DNA of 64,000 nucleotides from Malachius bipustulatus (Eukaryota; Arthropoda; Insecta; Coleoptera; Melyridae). The stretch lies in assembly GCA_910589415.1 (NCBI GenBank), contig OU342630.1, positions 89,462,186 through 89,526,185 of the forward strand. The letters run 5' to 3'. Positions 2,868 to 57,748 of this stretch are shown piece by piece (positions within the stretch are counted from its first letter, which is position 1; each line of letters begins with the position of its first letter). Under the pieces are notes generated by a model. The model was given only the letters and a program-made list of their open reading frames with translations, had not been told where the DNA came from and made no database searches. A program made the position numbers and the translations under genes.

Positions 2868-3396
2868 ATGAACTCTGAAATATTTATCTTGACTATAATG
2901 ATTGTCATTCAGGAGAAATATAGTGAAGTAATGATAAATCCCGTCAATGAAACATATTACGAGTATTACGACGAAGCTGAGAATTGCACTCTAATGACAA
3001 TGATCAAGCCGGTAATTAGAAAATGTTGCCCCTCTCATCAAGCCTACATCAAGAGAAAATGTCGAGACAGTGATGAAGAATTGGATTTGCTTCCTGATAT
3101 CTATAATGGTGTAAATCTGACAGATTTATCCATTGATAATTGGGAAATTATTTATAATAAAACCTGTTCTGTGGGTACCATTACAATATTACACCCAGAA
3201 TGGGTAGAAAATGACTTGTACTATATTCAAGAAAATGGATCGTTATATTTGCCATTCTGGGGAGGAAAGGATAACAGTATGACGCTATCATATGATATGT
3301 ACTGCATTGAAAATTTTATAGGAAAGAATGAAACTACACTAAGAGTGCTTTGTTGCAACGATCTGACTGAGGAACCAAACAGTAATACATCGAAGG
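2868..3396 (+). CDS. Methuselah-like GPCR ectodomain, array exon 1 (first coding exon, eight-cysteine type)
   Basis: Encodes an N-terminal hydrophobic stretch (residues 1-15, probable signal peptide) and a Mth ectodomain. The family core is clear: IRKCC at residues 50-54, a third Cys at 65, YYIQENGS at 118-125, MYC at 144-146 and the closing LCC at 161-163. Eight cysteines remain; the N-terminal Cys and the Cys just before IRKCC are missing relative to exons 3-5. NXS/T sites suggest a glycosylated extracellular domain. The ATG at 2868 is chosen over an upstream TTG because it directly precedes the signal peptide. The frame runs to AAG G|GTAAGT, so the exon ends in phase 1 at 3396. No 7TM exon follows before exon 2. 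Reading through the donor gives only one Lys codon and a stop. In the family this domain is the ligand-binding part of a class B-like receptor; ligand and partner exons are unknown here. Confidence 0.78.
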
Positions 3397-4398
3397 GTAA
3401 GTAAGTTATTCATTAATGTTTATTTATGAGATTTTTTAGAATAAATTAAAGGTACGTTAGGCTGGTATCATACTGATATGGACTAATAGTCTTATATTGG
3501 TAGGTGTTTTTAATTCATTTTGGCCTTTTTAGTGTATAATATGCACAATCATAATTACGTGTTAAAGCTCTATATAACATGCAAATTCGAACGAACAACT
3601 AAATTTAAATCCACACCATTTATTTGTTGGTTTCTGTCATTCCATGAAATTTTTAGATCACTTAATATCATATCGTGCACAAGAAAAAGCCCCAAATAAT
3701 ATTATCTCTACAAATACACCGATACAACATCCTGTCTTAACTATCTTATTTAAAGCGTGTTATGGAAATCATCTTTAGATGGTCTCCTATGACCTATGAT
3801 GAGCCCACCTAGCCTCGTCTAATCATCTCTTCGGCTTAAGTCGCTTCAAAGAGTTGAATTTTCATTGTTGTGCGATTCCAAGATTTAATAAAAACTGAAT
3901 GGATTGTGCGCCTATGGTGAAAATGTTCTGGAGTTAAAATTCTGATCTCCGCGGGCAGTGACTTATCCGAGGACCCGTTCATGCGAGAATTTTAAAAGTT
4001 TGCAGCTGACGTTTGTAACACGTTAGTAGTTAAAACACGAACATAAATAAATACATGCACCAAAGCTGCATCTGGAAGCAAATTAATCTGATATTCGCAT
4101 TGCGCGAAATCGCGTTGCCTTGTCAGATTATTACCAAAAAATATAAGTGAGCTGCATAATTCTGCGGCATCGACTTGCAGTAAATTTTGAGTTCTTGTGG
4201 AATATTTTATTGCCTTGATTGTTAATAAAATTCGTATTAATTCAGACGCGTATTCATCTGAGCACGAACGGGAACGATGAAAGGCGATGCCGAACGAGCA
4301 TTCGTATGTAGGCGTGTTACCGAGACGCGGCAAACTGCATGTGGCTGTGCGACGCACGACCCAAGGCAGTTCCAAATGTCATCCGATGGAAATGGTGA
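3397..4398. other. Putative start of intron/spacer after exon 1
   Basis: Begins with a GTAAGT donor. AATAAA at 3442-3447 could polyadenylate an unspliced transcript. No 7TM-coding stretch is seen. ORFs on both strands at 3992-4459 overlap one another and resemble no family I know. Confidence 0.4.
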
Positions 4399-5436
4399 TA
4401 TACAGAGTGGTCCAGTTTTTTATGCGTTAAATGCAGGGAACAACAGATACCTAATCTAAAAATAATATGAGTTTGCTTAATGAACTATATTCGGAAAATG
4501 CTTTGTTAAGAAAATACCGGGTGCTGAAGTTTTGAGAAAAAAATAGTATTTTTGAAATATTATGAAAATTGGTTGATTAGGATAATTTGAATCAATCTAC
4601 AGTAGTTGTTCCAATTGAAGTACATAATGCGATACTGCCAATGAAAGATTATTTAATCCAGTGGTGGAGATCTGGGTGTGTCGTTACCTTTTTTTTTTTC
4701 AAATAATTTCTAAGTCACTAACTTTAATGCAAATATGACATTTATTTTATGGTAGATACTTACCTCGTGTTGCTTAGAGGAGGAGCGTCATCCTACGTTT
4801 TTGTCGCAGGCGGCTTCGCACATGTTGTCACACTCGAGGAGTCGTTCTGACATTTTACTCGATAATTCTTTATTGACACATAATATCTTTCATATTATAT
4901 TAATTATAGAACACATTTTTCATCAAACTATTTCATCTTACAATTAGTTTCGATCAAAAAATCAGGCCTCATAATTTTAAATTTGATAAAACTTGAAAAC
5001 TTGAATGCGAATTACATTCAGTAAATAAACATAGCCTCCTCAGGTGTTACATCACACATGCGCAATAGCATACCATGTTAGGTGTATCGGGCCCAAAAAT
5101 AACATATTTGCATTAGAAGGCAGTGGAGGAGAAACTATTTTAAAAACGGCAACGACATACCCATCAGATCTCCGACACTGAATTAAATGATTTTTGATTA
5201 GGAGTACCAGATCGTGTACTCCAATTAGCACAATTCTGTGCAAAACTTCAAATTGTCGTAATCAATCAATTATTTTATATATTTCCAAAATATTAATTTT
5301 TTCTTAAACCTTTAACACCCTGTATTTTCTTAACGAAGAATTTCGCGAATACAGTTCATAAAGCAAAATCATATTATTTTTCGATTATCTGTTGTTCCTT
5401 GAATCTAATGTATTAAAAACTAGACCACCCTATATA
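4399..5436. mobile_element. Foldback element, about 1.04 kb
   Basis: The left end TATACAGAGTGGTCCAGTTT is matched inverted by AAACTAGACCACCCTATATA at the right end. The inverted similarity continues through ACAACAGATACCTAATCTA versus its mirror near 5388-5410. A second layer of arms surrounds TAAGAAAATACCGGGTG against CACCCTGTATTTTCTTAACG. No transposase ORF. Non-autonomous foldback type. Confidence 0.7.
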
Positions 5437-6833
5437 GGCAAGCCCTAAGGCCAATAACAGTGGTATCAGACTTAAGATAACGGTTTAAATTCTTTCAATT
5501 TTAAGGCGAGAGGTTTTTTCCCTAAATGATAAAAGGGATTTTCCCTATACGCCAATCCAAAACACCTTTTTGTTTTAGGGGACAAAAACTTGCTACATTT
5601 CCTGGTTGCGAAATTTGCGTAGAATTTGGTAGGTATGATGATACGATGAGAAGGAGCGTTCTGTGAAAAATGTCTGTTTATAGTCCAGTCATTGTCATAT
5701 TAAGTATACGTCCCAATAATCCGAAATGCTCTCATTGAATGGCTTAGAAAATCTTTTGTTAGGGTGTATTCACAGCTTTCAGTAAACGGAAATTTCAGTT
5801 GAGTTCATTTTTGATTGACCTATTGAATAAGTAGTATCCTAAAAGGACTGACCAATACTGACATGCAGTTTTGAAGTATGTATTAGATCTGCTTGAACCA
5901 ATAATATTTTGTGCCCTTTTCTGATACTATTTCTGATGCCCCAGTAACCCCCACGGGTGTTCACTTTGTTAGTATTTTGTCCTATTTCCAAAACAAATTA
6001 TACCAACGATCACCAGGAAAGTTGTTCTTAAAAGAATTTGGTCGTTTGGTAGCATCCATGATAGCCCGAGTGTAGAAGGAATCTCTCGCACCCAAAAATA
6101 ACCACGCTAAACATCCCTAATAGTGGGAGTATATTATGTATTCAAGAGCACTCTTTCGGAAAATAGTTAATTTTGTCTTTTTTTTCTTTTTTTCTTCTCG
6201 AAAATGCGGCCAAAGGACTCAATAATGGGAAATTATGGCCTAAAATTTGAAAAATATGGAATGCCATATTTTGGGATGCGATTTACGGCATTCGAACGGC
6301 TATCGGAAAACTAAAAAAGGATCCCGACCTATTTAGCATAGTTTCTCTGTATAGAAATGAGGACCTACAAATAGCCCATTTTCATATTTATGAGTTACGT
6401 TGAACTTACCATTTTTTGAAGAATGGTTTCGCTCTAAATGGTATCCCATGACGTAAAATCTAAAGAACCGATAAGTTAGCTCGGTTCAAGGAAATGACTA
6501 AAATCGTTTTGAGTTAAAAGAGTAAAAAGATAAAATTAAAACTGTTCGATGTCTAAGGGTAAATTCGGAATATTTCCTAATTTTTTTTTTTTTGGCTACC
6601 TACTTTGAAAGTACGCTTACCTACGATTGGTATCGGTATCTGACATTTATATTGTTGGAAGTTGCTAATTCAATTAGAGAGAAATATAAATTTTCATGCT
6701 TCAAGGTTTTGACAGCATACAATAAGCTTGTTAAAAAATAATTAAATTAAATTAAAGGAAATAAAAACTCCCGATGATCGCCAAAGCTATATGAGAGAAA
6801 TGCGGGTAATCGAAGGGATCTTTTTTAACCCGG
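5437..6833. other. Spacer without recognised content
   Basis: AT-rich sequence with homopolymer T runs near 6180 and 6580. No open frame with a recognisable motif and no long inverted repeat was noticed. Confidence 0.35.
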
Positions 6834-7061
6834 GAGTGGTCGTTAGGTGAGCATTTAGCTCACCATTGTCTTTAAACTGTAATAATTATTCTTTTACTTG
6901 AACTCGTACAATCTTGTCGATTTTTATAGCTTAGTTTATAGCCTTAAGAAGAAACATAGAAAGGATTTTGTAACGAAAATCTGGTAAATTTATTTTTTAT
7001 GCGGACGCTTCATTCACCGCAGTTGCAGCTACGCGAGCTAAACGCTCATTAGCGACCACTC
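6834..7061. repeat. Short inverted repeat (MITE-like)
   Basis: GAGTGGTCGTTAGGTGAGC followed by ATTTAGCTC is mirrored by GAGCTAAACGCTCATTAGCG and ACCACTC at the right end. A further copy of one end (GAGCGAAACGCTCGCTAGCG, then ACCACT) lies at about 7724-7749. No ORF is present. Confidence 0.6.
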
Positions 7062-7300
7062 GTGTCACTCAACTGCTCTTATGTTTAGGTCTGCTAGCCA
7101 TATGCAAGGGTTGCTGTAATTTCTTTATCTGAAGTCATTTGTTGTTTTTATGGTATGTGGTACCTATTAGCTTAGTTAAAAATCGAATCAGTTTGTGTTA
7201 TTTAATGTAAAAAAATCCTATAGTTATATACCAAAAAAATTTATATTGGAAAGTTAACATTATTCCTCCTTATTTTAAAATACCTACAACAAATATTGCT

Positions 7301-7683
7301 AATACAGGATGTTCGGTGATCGAAAAGCCGAAATAAAATTTCATATTATACAAAACCACATCATGAGCATAAAAAAGAATAACTTTGTCCTGATCGGGCT
7401 TCATTCAGGAAATATTTCCAAAAATGTAAAACTAAATCATCTGTAAATATTTTATGTTTTTGAGTACATAGACAGCCAAATTAAAATTTCATCAAAACTT
7501 TAATTAAAATTTAAATTTTTATTTGTTTTATTAAAAAATAATAACATTTTCCAGGTAGGCTTTGTTTAGGAAATACTCAGCCAAAAAAAAAAGACAACGC
7601 CTGACCTGGAAATTCTTTTTTATGCTTCTAATGCGGTTTTTTAAATTTAATTTTAGATGTCCGATCACCAAACACCCTGTATT
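7301..7683. mobile_element. Foldback/MITE, about 380 bp
   Basis: AATACAGGATGTTCGGTGAT at the left is mirrored by ATCACCAAACACCCTGTATT at the right. The arms continue inward through TTTCATATTATA/AAATTTAATTTTAG-like sequence. Belongs to the ACAGG(G/A)TG-ended class common in this window. Confidence 0.65.
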
Positions 7684-8251
7684 GTAATTCAATATTGCAC
7701 ATTTGCTTGTTGATTTTACATGTGAGCGAAACGCTCGCTAGCGACCACTTATGTTACAATTCACCTAGCGTCCAATGCCGGGCTAATAGATTTTCGATCT
7801 GTTTTCGAAATGTTTCGCAAAACACATTTTTGGGATAGATTATGTGATTTTTGGGGAATATTTTCCTAATTCTGGGCCACAAGCCACAATTGTGAAGAAT
7901 AGAAACCTGATTTTTGAAAAGAGCGACTATAGAAACATATGGTAATATGTCTTCCCTTATTTTGGTCTCTCTTATTTTTTTTCTCGATCGTTCCACCCCC
8001 GGACTATGAGAGATTTCACAGATGGCTTGACATATAATTTTGCCTTCTGCATGGGAAGTCAGTCATTACTTTTTCAAAAATCCAATTAATTAGCACTTCT
8101 TTTTGTCAAATTCATCTCTCCTTAGTTTAGGTTTTTTGAAGTTACTTGACAAAATATTGGAAATTAGCTTACCGTATGTCATACTTATTAGCCGCAGTTT
8201 GACATATATTATGATTAGATCCTTTTCAGTTTTTTTTTTCATACTTTCCAT

Positions 8252-9112: not shown

Positions 9113-9440
9113 GTTTTCGGCATTGAAAAAGTTAAAAAGTAAAGAGTATCTTACCCTATTGTATAAAAAGACAAAAATAAGATTAAAGCTTCAATAATAA
9201 ATGGGAAAGTGGTGGCAAATAAAAGTTATTAACCCTCATATTAGGTACTTGACGTTAATTTAATTTGCTCCCATAAAAAATGCCAGTCACAGGGGGGATA
9301 CGTATGAATGGCGTTACAAATACGTTACAATAAATGAAATAGCTTGTCAACTCTCACCACCCTAAATGATTTTGGGTTGGTCTTAGCAGTTTTGTCTTGC
9401 GAATAAAATACAATGTTACGTTAATTTTAGCTCGCCACGT

Positions 9441-9485
9441 GATATATTCCAGCCACTCTATTGTTTTCTGTTTCAAAGCACAGTG
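9441..9485 (+). promoter_or_regulatory. Candidate core promoter of ectodomain exon 2
   Basis: A TATA-like GATATATT at 9441-9448 is followed about 35 bp later by GCACAGTGTT, which resembles an arthropod initiator, and then by the ATG at 9522. Spacing is acceptable but the motifs are degenerate. Confidence 0.3.
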
Positions 9486-9521: not shown

Positions 9522-10101
9522 ATGAGGCTGCTCCTACTTTTGCTAATCTTTCGTGCCTGGAAAATCAATGAAGCTCAGAAATATGAAGTTAATTGGAATA
9601 TGACAACTGAATCAGAGCTTACTACTGATGTCAATTTGATGGACTTGTTACCTGACACAGACGATATTCCTTCCCAATTTTGCAATTTCCATAGAGTCAA
9701 ACAATGCTTAAGAAAATGCTGTCAGGAGGAAAGCTCGATTTTTTTTGGTTTTAATCGTACTGTCTGCAGACATAATCAGATGAAACTTATATTTAACATA
9801 TACGAAGAAGATTTATTCAGAAAAAAAATGAATAAGGAAGACTTCAACTGGGTGTACGGTAAAGATTGCAAGACACCTCTGAGATTGTTCATAAATCCAA
9901 AGGAGATGGATTCAGCTGAATTTTATATTCAAAAAAATGGATCTGCATTTATTCCGACATATTTTGAATTTCCGAGATACGTTAATAAATTTTGTATTGA
10001 CAATGTCTTCTACGAGAATAGATTCACTGGCCTAAGTTTGATGCTTTGTTTAGGAGATGAAGACATCGTTGACGAGGATAATTTGTACAATTTTAAATAT
10101 G
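9522..10101 (+). CDS. Methuselah-like GPCR ectodomain, array exon 2 (eight-cysteine type)
   Basis: A strong signal peptide (residues 1-12, poly-Leu) is followed by a Mth ectodomain: Cys54, Cys62, LRKCC at 63-67, Cys82, Cys116, FYIQKNGS at 134-141, KFCID at 156-160 and MLC at 174-176. Eight cysteines are present; the N-terminal Cys and the first Cys of the CxC pair seen in exons 3-5 are absent, and the spacing between the third and fourth family cysteines is two residues longer. The frame reaches TAT G|GTAAGC at 10101, a phase-1 donor. A second GTAAGT at 10119 would be phase 0 and is less likely. No membrane-spanning exon is seen before exon 3. Retention of the intron would add eight residues and stop at 10127. 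The domain is extracellular in known Mth receptors; the ligand is unknown. Confidence 0.82.
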
Positions 10102-10601
10102 GTAAGCTACTTTATCTGGTAAGTTAAAAAATATAGAACTGAATTTTATGCACAATAATAACTTTTCCTTATTCTTATCGACGGTACGTAAGTAGGTAAA
10201 GAATATCTACGGAACGCCTGCCCTATGTAATTAGCGCAAGTTCAAATAATTTGAGAAGTTTTTCAGTTGCGTAAGTAATTGCAAAGATGCAGATGTTTCA
10301 AGGCATTAAACACACTTTCTTGACTTATTCCCTAACAATTAACGGATAGCCGGCAGAAATAAATTATGCAAAAATAATTTGCAAATGAGAGACGATTTAA
10401 ATTTACCACTATTTATCTCTTAGTGAGCTATTCGTCGTATTTTGGTAAAAACATATGTGTGCTATTAATACGATCCTAGAAATTAACACAATATTTACAA
10501 TATGTCTAAATAATCCATTCTTGATCGCCGATCATGGCTAATGAATAAATAATCATAAGTGTAAAAGTTATTTGGAGGTTACCTATATGTATAGGTATCT
10601 A
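10102..10601. other. Intron/spacer after exon 2
   Basis: Starts with GTAAGC. AT-rich, no open frame with a recognised motif and no 7TM-like stretch. Confidence 0.35.
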
Positions 10602-14266: not shown

Positions 14267-14269
14267 ATA

Positions 14270-16726: not shown

Positions 16727-17363
16727 ATGTTTATACATACGCATTGTTCCCTCTTTTTGTTTTCGGTGCTAATTACTGTTTCTAGTGTCGTGCTTGAAAA
16801 TGAAAAGTGCCCCAAAAATTTAGCTGTCAATGTGACGAAATCAAACAATGACGATTATTATCATACAGCAGACAAGCACATCAGACTTTATGACGAGCAC
16901 GTCTTTACTGTGGATGGTCAATTGAAGGGTTGTATCTGTAACGTAACAAAATGCATTCGAAAGTGTTGCGCGCCAAACAAAAAATTCATTGTTAGCCTAG
17001 AAGATGAAAATAAATGTTCTAACACGGGTGTTGATCTTGAATTCGATATCTACAGAGGAATCGAAAATGCCAATAACATTAGTAAGGATCAATTGTATTT
17101 TATACACGGTTATTCCTCCTGCGATGGTGTAGACATGGTTGTTTCGCCGGATTTCATAGAAGACGACAAATTTTATGTGCAGGAAAATGGGTCAGTGTAT
17201 ATTCCCAGTATGGAGATGGTTGCTCATCAATCAGATTTCTGTATTGACATCATGGATGTCTATGACATCAAAAATACTTTTGGAGTGGTGGTCTGTCTAC
17301 CAGCAGATGATGAAAAATTGGAAGATGAGGGAAAATCAGTGGCTATGTGGCAAAAACTTGTAG
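16727..17363 (+). CDS. Methuselah-like GPCR ectodomain, array exon 3 (canonical ten-cysteine type)
   Basis: Signal peptide at residues 1-22, then a full Mth ectodomain with ten cysteines: C28, C69, C71, C76, C80, C81, C97, C132, C172 and C190. The signature GCICNVTKCIRKCC spans 68-81, FYVQENGSVYIPS spans 149-161 and DFCID 170-174. Potential N-glycosylation at NVT, NIS and NGS. The exon stops at GTA G|GTAAGA (phase 1). Exon 4 is a close tandem copy, about two-thirds identical by eye over residues 61-212, with the same exon length (637 bp). No 7TM exon follows before exon 4. Intron retention adds only KKYF-type residues and a stop. By family the domain binds ligand outside the cell; its partner membrane exon is not in view. 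Confidence 0.88.
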
Positions 17364-17719
17364 GTAAGAAATATTTTTAACAAATCTTTCTTTTCGTTGC
17401 CTGAATTACCTACTTATATGAGACAAAAAGACCAAACCATAACCATTCAGGTTTGATGAAATGAAATGTCAGATAGACTTGAACATCACTCTCTCACCCG
17501 TATTAGAGCGTCTGCGTCATATATTGGTTTAAATACCGAGAATATTATTATTTTTGTCTACTAATTCGACTTACGTAAAAGACTGTGATAATGGACAGGA
17601 TGCTATAATAGTATATATTGACTATTTCTTTATACGGGGTGGGCCATCGAAAAGGTAACAAGCCTAATAGTTTGAAAAGTGAAGATGTATTCGAAAAACG
17701 GCGAAACAGGTGGATTTTG

Positions 17720-21096: not shown

Positions 21097-21733
21097 ATGT
21101 TTAAGCATAGTTATTTTTCTTGCTCCTTTTTCTTTTCGGTGTCAATTATCATCTCGAGCGTTGTGTTTGCAAATAAAAAGTGCCCCAGTAATCTAGCAGT
21201 AAATGTGACAAAATCAAATTACGGCGATTATTACACAGCAAAGCATAACGTCAAGCTTAACGAAAAGCATGTCTTTACTCTGGATGGTCAATTGAAGGGT
21301 TGTATCTGCAACGTAACCAAATGCATTAGAAAGTGTTGCGCGTCAGGCGAAAAACTCATTGTTAATATGGAAGAAGAAAACAAGTGTTCTAAAACAGATT
21401 TAGATCCTGAATTCAATATTTACAGAGGCACTCAAAATGTTAATAATATTAGCAGAGACGATTTCTATTTTATACACGGTCTTTCTTCCTGCCACGGTGT
21501 AGGCATGATTATTTCACCGGATTTCATCGAAGAAGACAACTTTTATGTGCAGGAAAATGGGTCAGTGTATATTCCTAGTCTGGAGATTCTTTCTTATCAG
21601 TCAGATTTTTGTGTTGACGTTATGGATATTGATGATATTAGAAACACTTTGGGAGCGGTGGTCTGTCTACCAGAGGGTGATGACATCTTTGATGACGAAG
21701 AAAAATCCATAGCCGAGTTTCAAAAACTTGTAG
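21097..21733 (+). CDS. Methuselah-like GPCR ectodomain, array exon 4 (ten-cysteine type, tandem copy of exon 3)
   Basis: Start chosen at the ATG at 21097, matching the start context of exon 3 (AGAGATGTTTA in both), rather than an in-frame TTG at 21076. Signal peptide at residues 1-23, then C29, GCICNVTKCIRKCC at 68-81, C97, C132, FYVQENGSVYIPS at 149-161, DFCVD at 170-174 and VVC at 188-190. The exon is 637 bp, as in exon 3, and ends GTA G|GTAAGA in phase 1. Both flanking donor and start contexts are conserved with exon 3, so the duplication included them. No 7TM segment follows before exon 5. Reading through the donor gives 11-12 further residues before a stop. Family role: extracellular ligand-binding domain. 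Confidence 0.88.
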
Positions 21734-22385
21734 GTAAGAAATATTTAAACATTTCTTCGTGTGTGTTTTCTTAATTATTTAGATAAAACAGACTCGAGAG
21801 ATCAGAAGATATATGGAGTTATCCGGCGATCATTAAAATTACCTATTTATCTTATCAAAGTGAGATATAGAAAATTTAGTATAGGCAGTAAGCATGTCGC
21901 TCCTTATGTGACCCGGCGGTCACATCATATGATTTGTGTTTCACATTTTTAAGCATTTGTAGTTGTGTAACATTGTTGATTTATTGTCGTAATCGTTATC
22001 TACTATATCTTCTATTGCGCTATCTTTTTAACAACGTTGTCAGATTAAAAACAATCAGCGGTATATTAATAACAGAGGCTTAGTAGGGTTTTTACTAGTT
22101 GTCTATTGCTACTCAGAGACTAGCAACTATAATACTCGTACATGGAACAATACTTTCAGCTGTCAATTCGTTATTGGCAATCTCTTAAAGTGGCGTACTT
22201 TAGCGTAATAATAGTCAATCCCGTTCTAATAGCTAGGTGAATCTGGCAAGCATGAAGTTGCCATGAAAAGACGATTTCTTGCATTGTCAATTCTTAAAAA
22301 TTAATCTTCGGACGTTGACAATGGATAGATATCAACAATGTTGAAGTATACTTATAATTCATTTAAAAAATTAACTTTGCTCAAT
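21734..22385. other. Intron/spacer after exon 4
   Basis: A short + ORF (21761-21952) starts inside the exon's read-through tail and has no motif. No 7TM-like segment. Confidence 0.35.
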
Positions 22386-30432: not shown

Positions 30433-31033
30433 ATGTCGCACACTAAAGTATTCTTATCGTCATTGCTGTGTTGTATCGTTTCTGTTTACTCCATGGATGC
30501 GTTTAAATGTCCTAAACATCTAAGTACGGATATAACAGAAGGTACCAAAGTTGGCTTCGATATAGATCACGCAGGTGTTAGATATTCAACAGAAAACTAT
30601 TACGTAGAAGACAATAAGACATTCGGTTGTATATGCAACATAAAATCGTGTATAAGGAAGTGTTGTGAATTTGGTAAATTGTTAGCTATCGACCCAACAG
30701 GTAAAACGAAGTGCAGAAGAAGTAATAGCACCTTCGGCGTTAAGTTCCATAGCAGTACTGATGTCCTTCAAACTGAACCTTTGGATTTGCACTACATTCA
30801 TGGAATTCATTGTAAGGGAGGCAACAGTACGGTTGTGTCACCTATAATAACCGAAGAAGATAAATTTTATATTCAGGAGAATGGATCTGTTTTTATTCCT
30901 TCGTTTCCTAAGCAAATCATTCCTCCAGATGATTTTTGCCTGGATGATCTGCTTCTGGACGATCTTAAGGAACCAATTATCATTTTGTGTACGCGTAAAA
31001 TCCCAGATGTACCTAAAAAATACTTTTTTATTG
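30433..31033 (+). CDS. Methuselah-like GPCR ectodomain, array exon 5 (ten-cysteine type)
   Basis: Signal peptide at residues 1-20, then ten cysteines: C26, C66, C68, C73, C77, C78, C94, C127, C169 and C186. FGCICNIKSCIRKCC occupies 64-78, FYIQENGSVFIPS 145-157 and DDFCLDD 166-172. The ATG follows AAA in AAAATGTCG. The coding part ends at ATT G|GTAAGT (31033, phase 1). Unlike its siblings, the frame stays open 46 codons past the donor to a stop at 31171-31173, and that tail is strongly hydrophobic, so intron retention could in principle give a membrane-anchored form. No 7TM exon is seen before exon 6. Extracellular ligand-binding role is inferred from the family. Confidence 0.87.
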
Positions 31034-31173
31034 GTAAGTTTTTCTATTTGCAGTTTTTAATCTCCGATATATTTTTAGCTACCTATAAAAATATTTTTTT
31101 ATACTATGTTTACCTACTTATTCTCATTATTCTCACCGTAATAAGCTTAGACCGTAAACAGTTAATCAAATAA

Positions 31174-39329: not shown

Positions 39330-39801
39330 ATGACTAGACTCGTGCTATTCCTCCTCAAGTCGCTCTATCTTATCGCGTGCATTTCCGATCTCCGGGTGTT
39401 CAGTGCTTACGATGTCAGTGATAATGACTTTTCTATTTTCAAAGCTCGTACTTCAAGAAAGTGCTGTCCTCCCAATAAAGCCCTCGGCGAACGTAAATTA
39501 CGCGGAAGATGCATCCAGAGACAAGGAAATTCATCTTCCCTCGATTTTTCAAATTTTACACTGTATGGTAGAAAGTGTCCTTCGAAGGAATACCAAATCG
39601 TTATTCTATATCCTGGAGATAAATGGATTGTTCATGACGATGGACGATTGCAGATAGTGAACTTCACGGGCCTTACCTTTGCAAATCAAATTTTCCCCAT
39701 AAACCAATACTGTTTTGATCAGTATATCGATTCTGGAAACATGGTAGTGCTAATTTGTAAAAAATCTTTTATCATGCCGGATCAATATCTATGTAGTGTA
39801 G
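39330..39801 (+). CDS. Methuselah-like GPCR ectodomain, array exon 6 (shortest, diverged)
   Basis: Signal peptide at residues 1-26, then SRKCCPPNKALGE at 42-54 in place of the usual CIRKCC block, C61, C83 (RKCPSKE), WIVHDDGRL at 99-107 in the place of FYxQENGS, QYCFD at 126-130 and LIC at 141-143, plus C155. The segment that carries the first four cysteines in exons 3-5 is deleted, so only seven cysteines remain. The reading frame is intact and closes at GTA G|GTGAGC (39801, phase 1), which argues against a pseudogene. The read-through tail is three codons and a stop. No 7TM exon follows. Family assignment rests on KCCPP, the aligned DDG turn and the spacing of the last cysteines. Confidence 0.68.
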
Positions 39802-42800
39802 GTGAGCCTTTTTAATTTTTTTTACTGGAAATTAATTTTCTGTACAATTACATATAAAAAATAGTATTTGAAATATAAAGTACATTAATATCTACTTTCT
39901 AAGTTTTTTCAGTTTCAATGAATTTCCGATAGTTACATAAATTATTTCAGTTGAATTAATTCATTTTTATAATGAAGACATTTTTTTCGTATGTAGGTAG
40001 GTGTTTGATTTCAAATAAGGATGATTTGTAAAAAAATAACGAAAAAATTTTGCATACAGTGTGAGTCACAGTGCATACAGTTGTGCATAAAGTGTAAAAA
40101 AAAAAAAATGTATGTAAGTATGTATCAACAACTTACTATCTTCTGATGTTATATTTTCAGTATTTACAGAGTGTACGGCGAGGTTGTGGTTAAATTAATA
40201 CACATTTTCATTAACGACGATTGAATATTTTTATGTAAAGTGGTTGCTCGTTTAAAAGTTTATCTAGAGATAGTGATTGTAATTTGCACATAAGCCAGCG
40301 GACTTTAAAAGGAATTTGGACCTTCTCAGAACAAATCCGCTATGAAGTCCGTTTGTGTGTGGGGGACCTGTAATCGGAGATCAAGTCCGTCTCCGTCAGA
40401 CCAGTGCATCTGATCCTGTCCGTTTTATCATTTTTACTATATCATATCCTTTAAGGGCTGGGTCTCTTCAGATCCTACAGAATTTAAGTTTGTGGTTATG
40501 CTACCTAAATTAAGGTGGTACCAGCTGTAGTTCATTGTATTTTCTAGATGACTAGGCATCTACCGTATAAAAAAATTCGTGATTCTCTGTTTGTGTTGGT
40601 ATACTGTGTAAGCAGCAGCTTAATTAGGAACAATTTGTCATGACATACTCTGAGTGTAAAAATATTCTTGTGAAAATAAAAAAAAAATGATGAACCTCGT
40701 AGGGCACGTAGGCTTAAAATAAGTTTCGTTATCTCGTCTTCTCAATAGCTTCATTATCATACCGAAGACGCGACCTAAAGCTCTGTGTCAGTTTTTATGG
40801 GTCAACTGAATTATCTATATATTGGAAACCTGCATGAACTATACAGATTACCAAGAATAACTTTACATCTAAGGGAATCTAGCAGCGACAACACCATCTA
40901 TACCTGCAGGAAAAATTACCCTCGACTTCATTGAGATAATAAATGAAATAAAACTTCCCTCGCAATATTTTCTTAAGTACAATCGAAGCAAAAAAAATTA
41001 ATTCCTTCTCGAACAGAATAAAAACACACCTCTAATATTATACGTAGGTACTGATAAAATTACACATAACTCATAATTTTTTGGTTTTATTAGTTATAAA
41101 GGGTTATTAACGGCAATAATTAAAGGAATTCAATGTAAACAAACGTTGCAGTGAGTATGATATAGGTACGCGAATAGTTATCTAATTATTTTTAGCAACC
41201 TTCTTAGAAAAAATACTGTCAGGGACATCCAAATATATTTTACTATGATTTGAAACTTGATAGCTTGAAGTAAATAAGCAGCTAATAAGTGCCAAAAGAA
41301 TGAAATTATGTGAAACTGCTTAATACCGTGAGATTCAGCGGAAAATGGTTATAATTACACCTCAAGGTATGGTGAATTTTAAAGGTGGTATTAAAAAGGG
41401 TATTGTTTTCATCCTTTTTAACTAACGTCAATTGTTCAATTTCTCCTGTTTTTTATATCGTGAGTATACTGAGTTATACATGGGCAAATTACCCTGTACC
41501 GTTTTGGGGAATACTGGACGTTTTACACATGGGAAAATTGTTAAACTCTATTTCAATGAATTACAATTGATAAATACCTTATTTGTTGGTATTGTTACAA
41601 ACAACACCATGGAAACAGTTTACCATGTCAACTTCCAATGGCAAGTGGCCTGTGAAAAGAAGACTTTTCTTTTTCTTTTTATTGTTTAGAAACTTTTCAC
41701 GATATATTTTCTTATAATAAGTGTTATAGAACACATTAACGATGAATAAAGGGAAAGTGACATATGAATTAAATCAGTCACAAATAAAGCGCAAGCATAT
41801 TCTGTTTAGTGGTAGGATAAATACAAATAGAGGAGAGTACATAACATAGTTAACATTATAAGATATAGAGCATTTGCAGCATAGTCAATACAATAATAAT
41901 TATGTTAACAATCCCATAGTTACTATGATGACATCTATGTTTATCCAGGTCAATGTGCCTTGATTTCTTTTCGACTTCCTTAAGAATCACCGTCCTGTTA
42001 TCTTTAATAGTTACACACTTAAGTACACATCAATACAGGTAAATATTATATTGATATCCAGTCACACCAATTGAAGAAATTCAGTTTAGGTAAATCGTTT
42101 TTCCGTTCTTTTCACTAAGACTGTTGATGAAACGCCACCCTGATGCATATATTTGGTTCTTTACTAATAATCTTGTTATATCTTTTATGACCCGATAACA
42201 TGACATCATAAAAAATTTGTTAAATCTATAAATACCAAATAAAATCTAAAATAGTAATAGATACATTGCCTCATGATCGTCGTCATGATTTGTCTTTTAT
42301 CTTGTCTATAGTATCGGGTATTCAGTGATTAGCACTTCCTCAGGGGGCCGTGGACCGCGGAACGTATGTCTTAACTTGATTTAGATTCTTCGAGAATACG
42401 AGATATGAACGGTTCAACATGATAGTTGATTTAGAGATAATCGTGATTCGCTGTCACGGTTAGACTAGACTAGATTTATTGTGAGTGGGCCATTGTGACA
42501 CCTCCACTGCGACCGAAGGTCTATTGTGGCTCGCTCTCATGGTTAACAAATGAATCTGTCATTTGTTTTGATTTGTTTCAAAATAACTGTAATTTTATTG
42601 CAAGTTGTTAGTCTCAAATCATCGGTGTTTCATCCGTAACTCTCTAAATCACCTACGCGTCAAATAGCCATAAACAGTGTTTCTCGCACATGGGTATCTC
42701 AAAGTAACGAGTAATTTAGTTCTGACGCTGCTTCGTAATTCGGTTCTCCCATCTCTAGTACCACCTCAATGAAACTGATGTAATGTAAGCAATGTGACGT

Positions 42801-44296: not shown

Positions 44297-46000
44297 TCAA
44301 AACTTTTCATAAATTTCTTCAATTCTAACTTTCGGCCTTACATAACCTGTTTTGGCTTCTTCGTCCAATCTCTGCAAGTGTAACTTGAACTTACTCGATA
44401 CGGTAACTTCACAGTTTTGACGAAGAAGAATTTGAAGCTTTGTATAACCCTTCATACATTTTTTAAAGTCTTCGTGTGTTAAGCTGTATACCTCTGCTAT
44501 TTCTACAGACACTACACTTAGCAAATGATGTTTTACCTGACGATTAAAGTAATAATATTCTCCAAATACTTCACCATCTTCTAAGTGGACTACCTCAAGG
44601 CCTTCATGATCGTACCCAGCACAGCTACCTCTGTGCAAGAAATAGATTTTGTTAGGTTTTGAGCCACATCTGATCACGACATCATTAACAAGGTAAACCT
44701 CTTTCTTCAAACAAGCAATGATACTTCCTATCAGGGCTCTGGGCATATTTTGAAAGAATAGGGCATTCATTATCATCGGAGTGAGCGTGAAAAGAATTAC
44801 TTCATGCCTCAGATGTTCAGAGAGTGTATCTAGAATAAAGTACTCGTTGATGAAACTTCTTTCGAAACGGTAGTTGAAATACGACATGACTCTGATTTTA
44901 ATGTATTTAGGTACGTGTTTTTGAGTTAAATACTCCTTTAGTTGCTTTTGCATGTCGTAGAATTTATTTCCAACTATTTCCGCTAAACTAACCATTTCGC
45001 AAACCACAACCATTAGATAAGAAAAGTATAGAATTCCGCACAGTCTTATGAATCCATGTACAAGTTTCTCTGGAGTATTATCTGCTTCGTAGTTCCCTCG
45101 AGTCAAGAAAAAAATGCTAGCACTTTGATAAAATGATTCTGCATATATATATGATCCAGGTTGAGAATTTAGTTGAGCTTTATTGATGAATGATGTTCGG
45201 TAACCGGAGTGGTTCGCAGCTCCACCAATTATGTATATAGCACAAGTAGCGTAATGAATAAAAATGAAGGAATTGATGGCAATACAGATTATATTATAAG
45301 CGGAATCTCCTAGTCGACAATAATCAGATATTCTTCGAAAATAAAGAGTTATTGTAACAAATCTTCTCAGTCTTAACAACTCTTGGAATATAGTCAGGAA
45401 GAATATCCAAAATGGTATGTTGTTGTAACCCTTTTGTTCTGTTCCATAATATGAAGCGGAATAAAAATATATGTTAATGGCAATCAACATAGGCATACAG
45501 GAAAGAAAATCAGTAATGAGATAGTTCTTCAGATAATTTGCTGCGATAATTTTTGCATCAACGACCACAACACGGATATCGGGATCGATATATCCCAGAA
45601 AAAAATTAACGATGATATCCACTAAAAGGACTAAATTAAAGATGATGACTTTTGGTACTTGGTCGGTGTAAAAGGCTACTATGGTAGTCTCGCCGATAAT
45701 GAAGCTCAACCAAAGAATCATCATTACGATTTCGCGATACATAGCCAAGGCACTAAGAGGATGGATAATATACCAGAATTTTGATCTGGCGTGACGCTTC
45801 TTCTCCGCAAGCAACGAATTTCGGCTCTTGAAGTAGATGCGTGTATCGCTGTTGAGCTCCGAGGGTAACAGAGATCTTCGCAGAAGTCGCATAAAACGAC
45901 TGAAGTATCCAGCATCTGGCTGAAGCTTTGGTAAGCCACTATCGGATTCCTCTCCAGCATCCAAAGTACAACGGTGAACGTCGATTAATTTCCACTGCAT
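44297..46000 (-). CDS. Divergent HCN/CNG-superfamily cation channel, single open exon
   Basis: 567 residues with the layout of a cyclic-nucleotide-gated voltage-channel-like subunit. A pre-S1 HCN-type motif (SKFWYIIHPLSALAMYRE) spans 73-90; S1 about 91-111, S2 118-137, S3 155-178, S4 208-223, S5 234-260, pore helix and loop 284-305, S6 315-345, C-linker 346-415 (QKQLKEYLTQKHVPKYIKIR) and CNBD 420-515. S4 keeps only a short basic run (LRLRRF, FRR). The selectivity region reads FFLTRGNYEADN, without the GYG of HCN or the TIG/ETPPP-type filter of CNG channels. In the CNBD, FGE is present at 479-481, but the usual Arg-Thr-Ala phosphate contact is replaced by His-His-Leu-Leu at 491-494. The frame has no intron, unlike typical family members, which suggests a retrocopy or intron loss. 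It lies antisense in the gap between ectodomain exons 6 and 7. The intact length implies function, perhaps as an auxiliary or non-cyclic-nucleotide-gated subunit. Superfamily is certain, subfamily is not. Confidence 0.88.
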   Translation of the reverse strand: MQWKLIDVHRCTLDAGEESDSGLPKLQPDAGYFSRFMRLLRRSLLPSELNSDTRIYFKSRNSLLAEKKRHARSKFWYIIHPLSALAMYREIVMMILWLSFIIGETTIVAFYTDQVPKVIIFNLVLLVDIIVNFFLGYIDPDIRVVVVDAKIIAANYLKNYLITDFLSCMPMLIAINIYFYSASYYGTEQKGYNNIPFWIFFLTIFQELLRLRRFVTITLYFRRISDYCRLGDSAYNIICIAINSFIFIHYATCAIYIIGGAANHSGYRTSFINKAQLNSQPGSYIYAESFYQSASIFFLTRGNYEADNTPEKLVHGFIRLCGILYFSYLMVVVCEMVSLAEIVGNKFYDMQKQLKEYLTQKHVPKYIKIRVMSYFNYRFERSFINEYFILDTLSEHLRHEVILFTLTPMIMNALFFQNMPRALIGSIIACLKKEVYLVNDVVIRCGSKPNKIYFLHRGSCAGYDHEGLEVVHLEDGEVFGEYYYFNRQVKHHLLSVVSVEIAEVYSLTHEDFKKCMKGYTKLQILLRQNCEVTVSSKFKLHLQRLDEEAKTGYVRPKVRIEEIYEKF

Positions 46001-46189
46001 TCTCTATATCATTTACAGCACGAATTCTTCACTTCTGAGGAAAGTTATTAGATTAATTTCTTATACATTAGCTGTCACCTTTGACAACATCTGCCTGCGT
46101 CCGAATTATATCCGTATTATGAACCATTATTATACATTATTGCGAATATTTAAAAAATAAAAAAATTTAACATTTGTTCATGCAATTAC
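46001..46189. other. Region upstream of the channel gene
   Basis: On the - strand the sequence before the ATG reads AAATGATATAGAGAATG, so an upstream non-coding exon ending at ATAG is possible. No TATA box is convincing. Confidence 0.3.
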
Positions 46190-52570: not shown

Positions 52571-52655
52571 CAAATGAGCTCAGACATTACTGCAATAGCC
52601 ATCTCTTTCTTCCAAGGCACTAGTTAATGAAAAATTTTGTGGATCCCACGATATT
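52571..52655. repeat. Partial copy of the 1.66 kb MITE
   Basis: AATGAGCTCAGACATTACTG, then CCAAGGCACTAGTTAATGAA and ATTTTGTGGATCCCACGATA, match internal and right-end sequence of 1655-1844. Confidence 0.65.
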
Positions 52656-53283
52656 ATAAAGCAGACAGCATGTATTATTATTAGTGTATTTTTTAATAAA
52701 TTTAACATTAAAAACGACTTCTAAGCTGCAAGCCAACATAAGTTAACGTAGGGTGTAATTCTCTATGGCAACACTTAAAAAAGAAAACTGTATACAGGGT
52801 GAATTTTCTTGATGTGTTTTAGACGTGTTGAGAAAACTGGAATTGATTTAAAATTTCAAGGATTTCAAGTTGAAAAGATGAATTTTTAAATCTTTGTTTA
52901 CTTGACATGAATCAACTTTAATGCTAGGTAACTTTTCACGTGATTGGAATTCTTGGATTTATTTTGTTCATGTAAATGTATTGTGTCAATGTTTTACCAA
53001 ATTAGCACGATAAGAAATAATTTTCTTCAAATGACGAGACTTTTGTAATCATGAGTGATTCCGGGTTGTTTTGCCGTGGTCCTTGAAGATTTGCTCCAAG
53101 CGTTTCTGCAATCATCATCGCCAATTCTCGTTTCATCGAAATCTGCCTTGATAACCGGAAGAACATTCCCATATTCAGGGTGCTCAGTTTATCTGGAGAC
53201 ATGACAACATATCCAAAACTACGCATCGGATCAAAACAAGTCGCTGTTCGTTTGGAAGGGACACATCCAATGATACTAAACTT

Positions 53284-54682
53284 GGCCTCCCTACCTCCAC
53301 TACCTTGGGGTGGAAGTGGTTAACTTTGGAATCTTACCTCTAAAAATACGTTGGAAATTGCTCCCTCCTTTCCTCCTAATTTAGTGGGGGGAGTAAATTG
53401 AATTTCGGTTAGCAACCCTTATTTTTTATAGCAGATTCGGATTTTACGAACTAAAATCCGTATGATTTGTTTGCAACATTTTTTAGATTCATGACAGATG
53501 GCGCTGTAATCAAGGTAATCAAGGAAAACCAAATTTGGTTAAAATCCGTTTAAAAACTGGTTTGTCGCTACAAAGTCAAATCAATGGATTTTGTCCCGGA
53601 AAACAAGATTTGATATAAAAAAAGAAGTTTCCCATTGAAAATTTGGAGATCTTTCCTACCGCTAGGAGAAGACGGAGGTCAAAAATATCGCGGACGCCTG
53701 ATTTTCAATGTCTTTTTACCAAATTTGGTTTTCGTCGATTACAGCGCTACCTGTCATGAATCTAAAAAAAAAATTCAGACGAATCCTACGTATTTGCGGT
53801 CTTAAAATCCGAATCTGATATAAAAAATATATCTTTTTCTTCTTCTTAAGGTGCCGTCTTCTTGCGAAGGTTGGCGACCATCATGACCAATTTCACTTTG
53901 CTGACTGCTGCCCTGAACAGGTCGTTTGATGTACAGTTGAACCACTCTCTGAGATTTCGAAGCCACGACATCCGTCTTCTTCCCATGCTTCTTTTCCCCA
54001 CTATTTTACCCTGAATAATCAGTTGTAGCAGCTTGTATCTTATACCTCTCATTACGTGGCCCAGATATTGGAGTTTTCTGACCTTTACCTCTTGAGACAG
54101 TTCCAGGTCTTTTGAGACTCTCCGTAAGACTTCTTCATTAGTAATTCTGTCAACGTATGATATCCGGAGTACTCTTCTGTAAAGCCACATCTCGAAGGCA
54201 TCTATCTTTTTGAACATTTCTTTTGTTAGAGTGGCAGCTTCTATTCCGTAGAGTATTATTGTAAAAAATATGTAGCATCTTAGCATTCGTATTTTAAGTT
54301 GGTTACTTAAAGTTTTGCAGCAAAAGAATTTCTTCATTTTAATAAAGGTGTTACGTGCTATTTCGATTTTCGAAAAAATATATAAGGGTTGCTAACCAAA
54401 ATTCGAATTTACCATCCCCCCTATACACGGGGAAAGGAGGGACCAATTTCCTACGTATTTTCAGGCGTAAAATTCGAATCTGCAATAAAAAATAAGGGTT
54501 GCTAACCAAAATTCAAATTTACGGCGCCCCCCCCCCTACACGGGGGGAAGAGAGGGAGCTACTTCCCACGTATATTTAGGCGTAAAATCCGAATCTATGC
54601 CTAATAAAAAATTATTATAGGGTTCCTATTTAATATTCCAAAGTCACCCACTCCCACCCCTAGACAGAGGAGGTAGGGGGGC
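53284..54682. mobile_element. Large foldback structure interrupted by an RTE fragment
   Basis: Outer arms: GGCCTCCCTACCTCCACTAC (left) versus AGGAGGTAGGGGGGCC (right), with TAACTTTGGAATCTTACC mirrored by ATTCCAAAGTCACC. Next layer: TTTCGGTTAGCAACCCTTAT mirrored by two right-hand copies of AAGGGTTGCTAACCAAAATT (54383 and 54496), so the right arm is a tandem repeat of about 111 bp. A third inverted layer (TTCATGACAGATGGCGCTGT and inverse) occupies 53440-53825. The RTE piece sits between arms. Confidence 0.65.
53846..54372 (-). pseudogene. 3' end of an RTE-clade non-LTR retrotransposon (RT C-terminus)
   Basis: The 163-residue frame matches the well-known C-terminal tail of insect RTE reverse transcriptases: LRCYIFFTIILYGIEA, then FEMWLYRRVLRISYVDRITN, EEVLRRV, YLGHVMRG, LLQLIIQGKI, GRRRMSWLRNLREWF and FRAAVSKVKLVMMVANLR. 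Codons upstream to about 54372 (RNTFIKM) continue the homology, so the start at 54337 is not the true ORF start. It ends in KKTAP and is followed by a GAAGAAGAAGAAAAAGAT 3' tail, typical of RTE ends. 5' truncated; catalytic RT motifs are absent. Confidence 0.9.
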
Positions 54683-55395
54683 CAATTCTGAGAATTTGAC
54701 TATATAACAGACCGACAGATATATGAGTAATTCTACAGCGTGTCCTGAAAGTAAACGGTCAATCACTAATTAATTAATGTTATTCCCAGACCAAAAGTTC
54801 TTATTCACATAGGTCCGGAAGACGACTCGTTAACAAGAAAAATGATCATTCTTTGAAAATAAATTTAAATCAAAATTAAAACAATAAAACATATTTGCCT
54901 ATACCTATATAAATTGCTCAAAATATCCTCCATTGCTTAGTCAATCGTCAATCGTATTAAGCTAGTATTTCGGTACACTAGATACTTATGTTTAATTTGT
55001 TTTTTTTCTTAACGAGTCGTTTCCGGACCCTCGTGCATAGGAACTTTTCGTCTTAAAATGACACCACCTATCAAAGATTGACACATGACCGTTAACTTTC
55101 AGGACACCTATATCATAGGGGTTCTGTTTTTTTTTTTTTTGTTTTTTTAATGGAACGCAAAAAAGCAGTGTGTGCTTTACCTACACAAGAAAAATATAAA
55201 ATACGTGTAAGGAAATCTTACACTTCCAGATTGTTGATGTTTACTATTATTGTAAGAAAATGTTTCATTTTTTATTACAAGATTTAATTTATGATAGTAA
55301 TGAACAGGTATAGTAAAGCTGTTAACTCATATGTTAAACAAATGAGTAATGTTTGTGCAGTAGCGTTTAATCAAATTAATACTTGCATATGTAAA
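54683..55395. other. Spacer with no supported gene
   Basis: A possible small inverted pair: GTGTCCTGAAAGTAAACGGT at 54739 and ACCGTTAACTTTCAGGACAC at 55088 suggest another foldback of about 370 bp (54733-55110) with CCGGAAGACGACTCGTTAAC mirrored by TTAACGAGTCGTTTCCGGAC. Otherwise a T run at 55128-55148. Confidence 0.45.
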
Positions 55396-56123
55396 GCCCG
55401 GTTTACACGTATCCAGTGCTTTAGTAGAGTACAGTGATTTAGTAGAGTGAGCTTTCTGTTCACACAGGTCAAGTAATTTAGTGGAGTTGGTAACTAAAAG
55501 ACGAGTAAAAACAGGTGTCCACATGTGCACTTGTATTTTATTTAGTATGAGTCGAGTGGTCGAGTAGTAGATGCCGTTAAAAAATAATAATAATAAAATA
55601 ATAAAATAAATTGCGTTCTATAATAAAACACCTTATAAAATTATTAACAAAAAACGAGAAATTTTTGATCGAGGTCTTCGGTTAGTTATACAAATGCTTC
55701 TTGATGAAACCAGAAACTTGTGTGCTGCGGAGCTGAACAAAAATAAGCGTATATGGATACGAAAATGGTTGGCTAGAAGAAATGCGCTTGGAGGCTCCAT
55801 GTTTTGCGCAACAGTTTTGCAAATAAAACACATTTTTATAAAACACTCTCAAATTTTTTGGTTTGTTTTGCTGAATACTCTACTAATCTGATAATCACCT
55901 GCGGCGAGACGCGTCTACACGCGTTTAGTTCAGCTGAAAAAAGGGAGGAGGAAGGCTACTCGACTTGTACTCGACTGGAAAAATAGAATAGGATTCTATT
56001 TACTAAACTCGACTGTTAACTCGACCAAACCAGCTGACTTGACTAAAACACAAGTGTTCACACAGGTCGAGCATTAAATTACTCGACCGCTCGACTAAAT
56101 TACTGGATACGTGTAAACCGGGC
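55396..56123 (+). mobile_element. Harbinger-like non-autonomous element, copy 1
   Basis: Bounded by GCCCGGTTTACACGTATCCA, then GT, and the inverse ACTGGATACGTGTAAACCGG, then GC. The interior has repeated subterminal TTTAGTAGAGT/CTCGACTAAA motifs. A + frame at 55694-55891 contains IRKWLARRNALGGS, close to the start of HARBI1-type proteins and their relatives. 728 bp; a truncated derivative. Confidence 0.65.
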
Positions 56124-56128
56124 ATAAT

Positions 56129-56930
56129 GCCCGGTTTACACGTATCCAGTAATTTAGTCGAGCGGTCGATTAATTTAGTGCTCGACCTGTGTGAACACTT
56201 GTGTTTTAGTCAAGTCAGCTGGCTTGGTCGAGTTAACAGTCGAGTTTAGTAAATAGAATCCTATTCTATTTTTCCAGTCGAGTACAAGTCGAGTAGCCTT
56301 CCCCCGCCCTTTTTTCAGCTGAACTAAACGCGTGTAGACGCGTCTCGCCGCAGGTGATTATCAGATTAGTAGAGTATTCAGCAAAACAAACCAAAAAATT
56401 TGAGAGTGTTTTATTATTACTGTTGCGCAAAACATGGCACGTCATGGTGGTCTGAAGATACAACATATAAATTTGTTGTGGAGTATATCAAACATGAGTG
56501 CCTGTGGGATGTTAGAGACAAGAGATATAAAAATTGACAAATGCGGCAGGCAGCTTATGAAAAAATGCAGGAAGTGATGGGAATCCAGGCATTTGAGCGG
56601 AATGAAATTGTTCAAAAAATTAAAAACATTAGATTTACAACGTATTCTCAAGAGCTAAAAAAAAATTTATTTTATAATTTTATAAGGTGTTTTATTATAG
56701 AACGCAATTTATTTTATTATTTTATTATATTTTATTATTATTATTTTAACGGCATCTACTACTCGACCACTCGACTCATACTAAATAAAATACAAGTGCG
56801 CATGTGGACACCTGTTTTTACTCGTCTTTTAGTTACCAACTCTACTAAATTACTTGACCTGTGTGAACAGAAAGCTCACTCTACTAAATCACTCTACTCT
56901 ACTAAAGCACTGGATACGTGTAAACCGGGC
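56129..56930 (-). mobile_element. Harbinger-like non-autonomous element, copy 2, inverted relative to copy 1
   Basis: Same termini as copy 1, separated from it by only ATAAT, in opposite orientation: its left arm (GTAATTTAGTCGAGCGGTCG) is the mirror of the end of copy 1, and its right arm mirrors the start of copy 1 including the TAATAATAATAAAATAA-like tract. On the + strand about 56463-56660 reads FVEYIKHECLWDVRD and then QAAYEKMQEVMGI and YSQELKK, a nearly complete MADF DNA-binding domain broken by one stop. So copies 1 and 2 retain different parts of the parent element. Confidence 0.7.
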
Positions 56931-57249
56931 ATAAGAGTTTACTAAATTAAATTCCAATTCCAGTAAGATGCTATTAACGTACTTCGTCAATTATTTCAAA
57001 CATCACAGAGAATAGAATCGATTCGAGCAAGAGCAATCAGTGAACCGAAGGCATTCAAACTCTTAGGTGAAAAGTGATGCATTATTACGGAATCTGAGTG
57101 TTTACTTACTCAAACGATTCGTGTGGCCTTTACAATATGACACAAATGAAAGTAAACAGTAAATTTCTTTAAATGTGATCTTATCTTATCAGTTTGGTGG
57201 TTTAAACCTACGGATTCGTGCCAGTTTATTGCGAATTTCCACTTGAAAC
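56931..57249. other. Upstream region of exon 7
   Basis: An initiator-like ATCAGTG occurs at 57036-57042 but no TATA box stands about 30 bp before it, and the ATG is more than 200 bp away. Promoter position undecided. Confidence 0.3.
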
Positions 57250-57748
57250 ATGCATTACGTTCACTTTGTCACACTTATTTTCATTTATCAACTGCCTTTT
57301 CTGCTTTCTGATGAACTTGAGTGTACCAATGGCAAAGGGGGTAAAGAAGTTTATCAGGTGGAGAAAGAGAAAATCGTGAAACGAGTAGCGGGTAGTGCTA
57401 AGTGTTTGAGAAAGTGTTGTCCTTTCGGGCAGGTTATATCTGATGATGAAACCGGTGCGTGTAAAAATACTCTCGGTTTGACCAATATAGATAAGATCGG
57501 TGGTGCAAATTTTGGTAACATAATTCATGGAAATCTTTGTGAAAGTGAATCCTTCTCCAGAATTGTATTAAATGGAAATAGGAAGGAGGAACAGTCAGAT
57601 GAATTCAATTTATCGGACGACGGATATTTGTCCTTTGATGGGAGCCAGCTTGATTTCAAATCATACTGCTTGGATCTATATGAGGGAGAGACTGTCGCCA
57701 TAATTTGTACAAAAGATGAAGAAGTAGAACAGCTTCTTGTGGATATTG
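57250..57748 (+). CDS. Methuselah-like GPCR ectodomain, array exon 7 (eight-cysteine type)
   Basis: Signal peptide at residues 1-20, then C25, SAKCLRKCCPFG at 49-60 (C52, C56, C57), C71, C97, FNLSDDGYLSF at 119-129 where the others have FYxQENGS, SYCLD at 138-142 and AIIC at 150-153. Eight cysteines; the CxC block is reduced. The frame runs to ATT G|GTAAAT at 57748, in phase 1 like its siblings, but the donor is weaker and the next codons are AAA TAA. An AATAAA at 57752-57757 overlaps that stop, so this exon could also end a short transcript for a secreted ectodomain. No 7TM exon is recognised in the remaining 6.2 kb of window. Assignment rests on KCLRKCCP, the DDG turn and the closing cysteines. 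Confidence 0.72.

What the first reader, a model, noticed from the sequence alone, without database searches (positions are those of the whole stretch)
2868..57748. Seven-member array of Methuselah-type ectodomain exons with no receptor body in between
Seven + strand exons over 55 kb each encode a signal peptide and a full Mth ectodomain, yet none of the 4-18 kb gaps, nor the 6 kb after the last, holds a recognisable 7TM segment. This is the layout expected of alternative first exons, each with its own promoter, spliced to one shared GPCR body 3' of the window, as in clustered protocadherins or UGT1A but swapping the ligand-binding head of a GPCR. If true, one locus would make a family of receptors with a common signalling core and interchangeable sensors. 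I know of no described Mth locus of this type.
Basis: partly seen in the sequence, partly recalled or inferred. Interest (0 to 1): 0.9.

Follow-up and report, generated by a model that had tools for sequence, protein, structure and literature searches.

The report
Beetle receptor with interchangeable heads
One beetle gene appears to carry at least eleven different sensor heads in a row, any one of which could be spliced onto a single shared receptor body beyond them, so that one signalling receptor may be fitted with many different outer domains.

Summary
In the same genome the array has at least 11 Methuselah-type ectodomain ('head') exons on one strand (one upstream of the window, three downstream). 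They are followed by one intact six-exon 7TM body, 52 kb beyond the window end. No 7TM exon was detected between the first head and that body. The head donors are phase-1 G|GT and the body opens with a phase-1 acceptor, giving Gly-Met-Ile-Ile-Ser-Met-Pro-Phe. In 19 other beetle species, 98 of 98 Mth2-type proteins with a recognised junction share the body within each species, from that same glycine, and differ in the head. No transcript or protein of this species was found, so splicing here is inferred. Separate promoters have only weak support. The splicing scheme is known from insect gustatory receptor loci, and (recalled) protocadherins and UGT1A. Ten searches of a partial paper library showed me none describing it for a Methuselah receptor, though NCBI models already list the isoforms. 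Verdict: new variant of a known kind, widespread in the beetles listed.

The parts
2868..3396 (+). E1: alternative first coding exon, Methuselah-type head (176 codons + 1 base), donor GT at 3397
   Evidence: Methuselah_N 23.9 bits over cut-off 21.5; phase-1 G|GT
9522..10101 (+). E2: head exon (193 codons + 1 base), donor GT at 10102
   Evidence: no Pfam match; BLASTP to beetle Mth2 types best E 7e-12; phase 1
16727..17363 (+). E3: head exon (212 codons + 1 base), donor GT at 17364; close pair with E4
   Evidence: Methuselah_N 36.1 bits; E3/E4 dN/dS 0.31
21097..21733 (+). E4: head exon (212 codons + 1 base), donor GT at 21734
   Evidence: Methuselah_N 35.1 bits; phase 1
30433..31033 (+). E5: head exon (200 codons + 1 base), donor GT at 31034
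   Evidence: Methuselah_N 33.0 bits; model matches 1fjr at E 3e-7
39330..39801 (+). E6: short, most divergent head exon (157 codons + 1 base), donor GT at 39802
57250..57748 (+). E7: head exon (166 codons + 1 base), donor GT at 57749
   Evidence: Methuselah_N below cut-off, E 0.11; BLASTP E 8e-12; groups with heads of other beetle families, SH-aLRT 96

Best explanation
A beetle Mth2-type GPCR gene of about 132 kb (C1:89459889-89591830). At least 11 tandem alternative first coding exons each carry a start codon, a signal peptide and a Methuselah-type ectodomain, and each is spliced through a common phase-1 glycine codon to one constant six-exon 7TM body. Most likely transcription starts near the chosen head; heads further downstream stay in the intron because, as first exons, they lack an acceptor; and the donor of the chosen head joins the body's first acceptor. 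Shown: heads, donors, order, one intact body, matching phase, and same-body different-head proteins in other beetles. Inferred: the splicing in this species, separate promoters, and that different heads bind different ligands on one signalling core.
For: Seven heads in the window and four more outside it, on one strand. A single intact body of 318 codons after them, 66-68% identical to tenebrionid Mth2, 7tm_2 E 1.7e-13, with none detected before it. Phase-1 donors and acceptor. 98 of 98 junction-bearing proteins in 19 species with the body's first 200 residues identical within the species and head identity median 0.20-0.31. Three head-plus-body proteins on public contigs of 1676-2303 bases, too short for introns like those here. 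In-frame stop 3-87 bases before each of 15 ATGs. E3/E4 under purifying selection, dN/dS 0.31 (bootstrap 0.20-0.46).
Against: No RNA or protein of this species. Phase 1 is also expected of tandem duplicate genes, and for H0 and H11 the donor was picked by asking for phase 1 and for H10 by eye. Promoter evidence is weak. NCBI isoform models are predictions. The twentieth species compared, Ignelater, shows three different bodies.
Confidence: 0.87

Rival explanations
1. The same interchangeable heads and shared body, but with one upstream promoter and a non-coding leader exon; the heads are chosen as mutually exclusive internal exons (or several heads share one promoter).
For: The DNA alone cannot place transcription starts. 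A TATA-plus-initiator pair was found upstream of 1 of 15 heads only. TCAGT enrichment is weak: rank 3 of 1024 5-mers for 15 heads, rank 7 for the 11 array heads.
Against: No head has an acceptor-like site of score 14 or more within 60 bases of its ATG (0 of 15; random places 7.4%, so about one expected), while body-1 exons score 11-15 at their own acceptors. TCAGT lies within 200 bases upstream in 8 of 15 heads against 18% of random places, its reverse complement in 2 of 15.
Confidence: 0.25
2. The heads are left-over first exons of tandem duplicate receptors that lost their bodies, or they make secreted head-only proteins; they are not joined to body 1.
For: Three ordinary-looking head-plus-body sets follow in the same cluster. 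A head-only protein of Zophobas is in the database (P0001, 220 aa). E5's frame runs 46 codons past its donor through a hydrophobic stretch.
Against: All head frames are open and have donors. E3/E4 dN/dS is 0.31. Proteins of 19 other species join different heads to one body. E1 and E7 fall with heads that are joined to bodies in other families.
Confidence: 0.07
3. Heads and body are separate transcripts joined by trans-splicing.
For: Not excluded by DNA; head-to-body distances here are 25-118 kb.
Against: All heads lie upstream of the body on its strand, which cis-splicing needs and trans-splicing does not.
Confidence: 0.03

Closest known systems
Insect gustatory receptor loci with alternative N-terminal exons (Drosophila Gr39a; TcasGr214, 30 variants; AglaGr99, 17)
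   Same: Tandem alternative N-terminal exons on shared C-terminal exons in a receptor gene, beetles included (passages of PMC3011837, and PMC6720082).
   Different: Those are chemoreceptors of another family, and (recalled) the variable exon there holds most of the membrane part. Here the variable part is one secreted-side domain and the whole 7TM core is constant.
Clustered protocadherins and UGT1A (recalled, no call)
   Same: Tandem variable first exons, each with its own promoter, spliced to constant exons.
   Different: Not GPCRs; separate promoters are not shown here.
Methuselah / Methuselah-like GPCRs of Drosophila
   Same: Ectodomain family and fold and 7tm_2 core.
   Different: The fly subfamily is described as 16 members (start of abstract of PMC3655951); a Tribolium study counted three receptors against 15 in the fly (passage of PMC3163568). 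Here many heads serve one body.
Mth2 / Mth2-like isoforms of other beetles in NCBI
   Same: Same body within a species, different heads, same junction.
   Different: Predicted gene models; I saw no paper describing the locus.

Membership tests
Methuselah/Methuselah-like GPCR | Methuselah N-terminal ectodomain | tested here: met
   Pfam over cut-off in 6 of 11 array heads (E1, E3, E4, E5; H0, H9); E2, E6, E7 by BLASTP; H8, H10 by tblastn, best E 1e-10 and 1e-25
Methuselah/Methuselah-like GPCR | 7tm_2 core | tested here: met
   body 1, 50.9 bits against cut-off 20.6; outside the window
Alternative-first-exon array (as in Gr39a, protocadherins, UGT1A) | Tandem homologous first coding exons on one strand | tested here: met
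   11 heads with ATG and a close in-frame upstream stop
Alternative-first-exon array (as in Gr39a, protocadherins, UGT1A) | One downstream set of constant exons in compatible phase | tested here: met
   body 1, acceptor phase 1; no body detected between heads
Alternative-first-exon array (as in Gr39a, protocadherins, UGT1A) | Transcripts joining each first exon to the constant exons | not testable with these tools
   no RNA of this species; protein-level support in 19 other species
Alternative-first-exon array (as in Gr39a, protocadherins, UGT1A) | A promoter for each first exon | tested here: inconclusive
   TCAGT in 8 of 15 heads, TATA pair in 1 of 15, no strong acceptor within 60 bases in 15 of 15

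The most novel reading that the evidence does not exclude
Across polyphagan beetles one Mth2 gene works as a modular sensor: a slowly changing GPCR core with about ten or more fast-diverging, separately promoted ligand-binding heads, each tuned to a different ligand. It would be a GPCR counterpart of the protocadherin and gustatory receptor arrays, making up for the few separate Mth genes of beetles.
Probability: 0.4. Interest if true: 0.88.

Novelty: new variant of a known kind. Interest (0 to 1): 0.74.

Why it matters
GPCR diversity is usually counted in genes. Here one gene would give at least 11 receptors that share the intracellular side and differ in the outer domain: a natural domain-swap experiment for finding what Methuselah-type ectodomains bind and whether the core alone fixes the signal. 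Gene counts such as three methuselah receptors in Tribolium against 15 in Drosophila (passage of PMC3163568) would undercount beetle receptor variety. RNAi or mutations aimed at beetle Mth2 would hit one isoform or all, depending on where they fall.

Tried and rejected
Foldseek with the E6 model found nothing under E 0.001; the VIA second look gave 1fjr alone. A 7tm_2 search of the own genome listed 20 matches, none in this cluster: single exons of this divergent core are missed by it, so it says nothing about the locus. A genome-wide protein search for further copies of the body did not complete, so Mth bodies elsewhere in the genome are not excluded. TATA-plus-initiator promoters: 1 of 15 heads (random places 1.3%), no support. 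No own-species protein (4 hits, best 35% identity; best 68%; only 120 of 213 hits listed); every species named's list is, as I read it, a beetle. The two head trees are quick ones with many weak branches; E2 and E6 are long branches whose place is not to be trusted. Dropped rows: Ignelater (three proteins, three different bodies) is outside the 19 species; one Cylas protein (P0033) had no recognised junction; 20 of the 122 proteins then held were not in the count (single for their species, unnamed, head-only, or not given to it).

Full report

THE BODY. I fetched 200 kb downstream and searched window plus downstream with 122 homologues, then again with the heads and the body added and 30 kb of upstream DNA. 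Past E7 lie heads H8 79976-80537, H9 84173-84713 and H10 90541-91084. The first 7TM body then runs reg 116245-116424, 118550-118628, 120148-120326, 120439-120607, 123336-123536, 129498-129645 (stop), that is C1:89578430-89591830. It is an intact frame of 318 codons, 66-68% identical to Tenebrio, Tribolium and Zophobas Mth2 over 303-313 residues, 7tm_2 E 1.7e-13. Each of its six pieces was hit by 81-120 of 122 queries at E<=1e-3; none was hit between the first head and this body (E<=1e-3, E<=0.01). Of 50 kb examined upstream one head was found, H0 at reg -2296 to -1819, and nothing in the 47 kb before it. So the unit is 11 heads and one body over about 132 kb.

THE JOINT. The 15 heads of the cluster end in a phase-1 G|GT. 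For H0 and H11 I chose the donor by asking for phase 1 and for H10 by eye, so 12 of 15 are the fairer count. Body 1 starts after TTTTTCCAG with GA ATG ATA ATA, so head plus body reads Gly-Met-Ile-Ile-Ser-Met-Pro-Phe whichever head is used. A shared phase is also expected of tandem duplicate genes: necessary, not decisive.

NEIGHBOURS AS A CONTROL. After body 1 come H11 (138287) and H12 (153999) before body 2 (157269-166828), H13 (172409) before body 3 (173698-182655) and H14 (187763) before body 4 (191043-195427). So the search does find bodies more divergent than body 1. I did not build these three: a first exon of body 3 was not found, and body 4 seems to have its first exon twice, so their intactness is open. 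Nor do I exclude that array heads reach these bodies.

OTHER BEETLES. The relatives are mostly named Mth2 or Mth2-like 'isoform Xn' (120 of 221 and 120 of 213 hits listed). I compared 102 proteins of 20 species. In 19 species all 98 proteins with a recognised junction have the same first 200 residues from the glycine on within their species; their heads differ, median identity 0.20-0.31, highest pair 0.65. The twentieth, Ignelater, gave three bodies; one Cylas protein had no recognised junction. In 16 of the 19, all or all but one of the entries bear NCBI isoform names. Beyond the first 200 residues the bodies are not always the same: Anoplophora isoforms differ by an insert, two Tribolium isoforms by their C-terminus. 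In Dastarcus four proteins named Mth-like 2-1, 2-2, 2-4, 2-5 share one body; the paper on that beetle (abstract, sections 2.2 and 3.1 and a word search seen) reports RACE cloning of a 450-residue Mth-like2, the length of P0027, and holds no word beginning splic, isoform or exon. Three head-plus-body proteins lie on contigs of 1676-2303 bases, too short for the introns seen here, so probably RNA. In the Colorado potato beetle a table passage of PMC12626429 gives an Mth2 gene model of 134 kb with unnamed models of 540 and 519 bp (and one of 8 kb) inside, one of 516 bp after it, then a second Mth2 gene. That the short ones are heads is my guess.

EVOLUTION. Heads change faster than the body: for reciprocal-best pairs, mean head against body identity is 0.55/0.82 (Coccinella-Harmonia, 6 pairs), 0.73/0.92 (two Tribolium, 3), 0.71/0.94 (two Diabrotica, 4), 0.81/0.92 (two Euwallacea, 2) (part of the listed isoforms). 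E3 and E4, the only close pair, have dN/dS 0.31 (bootstrap 0.20-0.46), and their DNA similarity around the exon runs from 24 bases before the ATG to 13 after the donor. E7 groups with heads of tenebrionids, Dastarcus, Anoplophora, Leptinotarsa and weevils (SH-aLRT 96; 93); H0 and E1 with heads of Coccinella, Zophobas, Tribolium, Anoplophora and Leptinotarsa (93). So some head types probably predate these families; these are quick trees and many other branches are unresolved.

HOW IT PROBABLY WORKS. Each head has its own ATG with an in-frame stop 3-87 bases upstream, so heads are first coding exons. The simplest scheme is promoter choice: a transcript begun at one head contains the heads further down, which lack an acceptor and stay in the intron, so the first donor meets the body acceptor. 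No acceptor-like site of score 14 or more lies within 60 bases of 15 of 15 ATGs, but by chance only about one would be expected. TCAGT, the arthropod initiator as I recall it, lies within 200 bases upstream in 8 of 15 heads against 18% of random places, its reverse complement in 2 of 15; it ranks 3 of 1024 5-mers (7 for the 11 array heads), so this is weak. A common leader with mutually exclusive heads remains possible.

KNOWN OR NEW. The scheme is that of insect gustatory receptor loci: Gr39a (figure legend passage, PMC3011837), TcasGr214 with 30 variants and AglaGr99 with 17 (passages, PMC6720082); and of protocadherins and UGT1A (recalled). Here the exchanged unit is a folded ectodomain and the constant unit a whole GPCR core. 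Ten searches of the paper library showed me no paper describing such a Methuselah locus; I saw most papers only as listings, eight as passages or sections, and subscription journals are largely absent. Since NCBI models already list the isoforms, the arrangement is in databases. I rate it a new variant of a known kind.

Noticed in passing
window 44297-46003 (-): Single open frame of 568 aa resembling a cyclic-nucleotide-gated channel (cNMP_binding 7e-9; Ion_trans_N 0.01, below cut-off), nested antisense between E6 and E7.
   Followed up: no
window 53846-54391 (-) and 63003-63533 (-): Open frames that look by eye like LINE-type reverse transcriptase fragments.
   Followed up: no
reg 191043-191162 and 192141-192374 (C1:89653228 and 89654326, + strand; L019): The fourth downstream body seems to have its first 7TM exon twice.
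   Followed up: partly
reg 173698-182655 (C1:89635883 on): For the third downstream body no first 7TM exon was found; it may be incomplete.
   Followed up: partly
other species: Anoplophora P0004 and P0042, Tribolium castaneum P0024 and P0025: The constant body varies too: a short insert before the last third in Anoplophora and another C-terminus in two Tribolium isoforms.
   Followed up: no
Leptinotarsa chromosome 10, table in PMC12626429: A 134-kb Mth2 gene model with short unnamed models in and beside it, in a list of candidate genes for imidacloprid resistance; looks like the same kind of locus.
   Followed up: no
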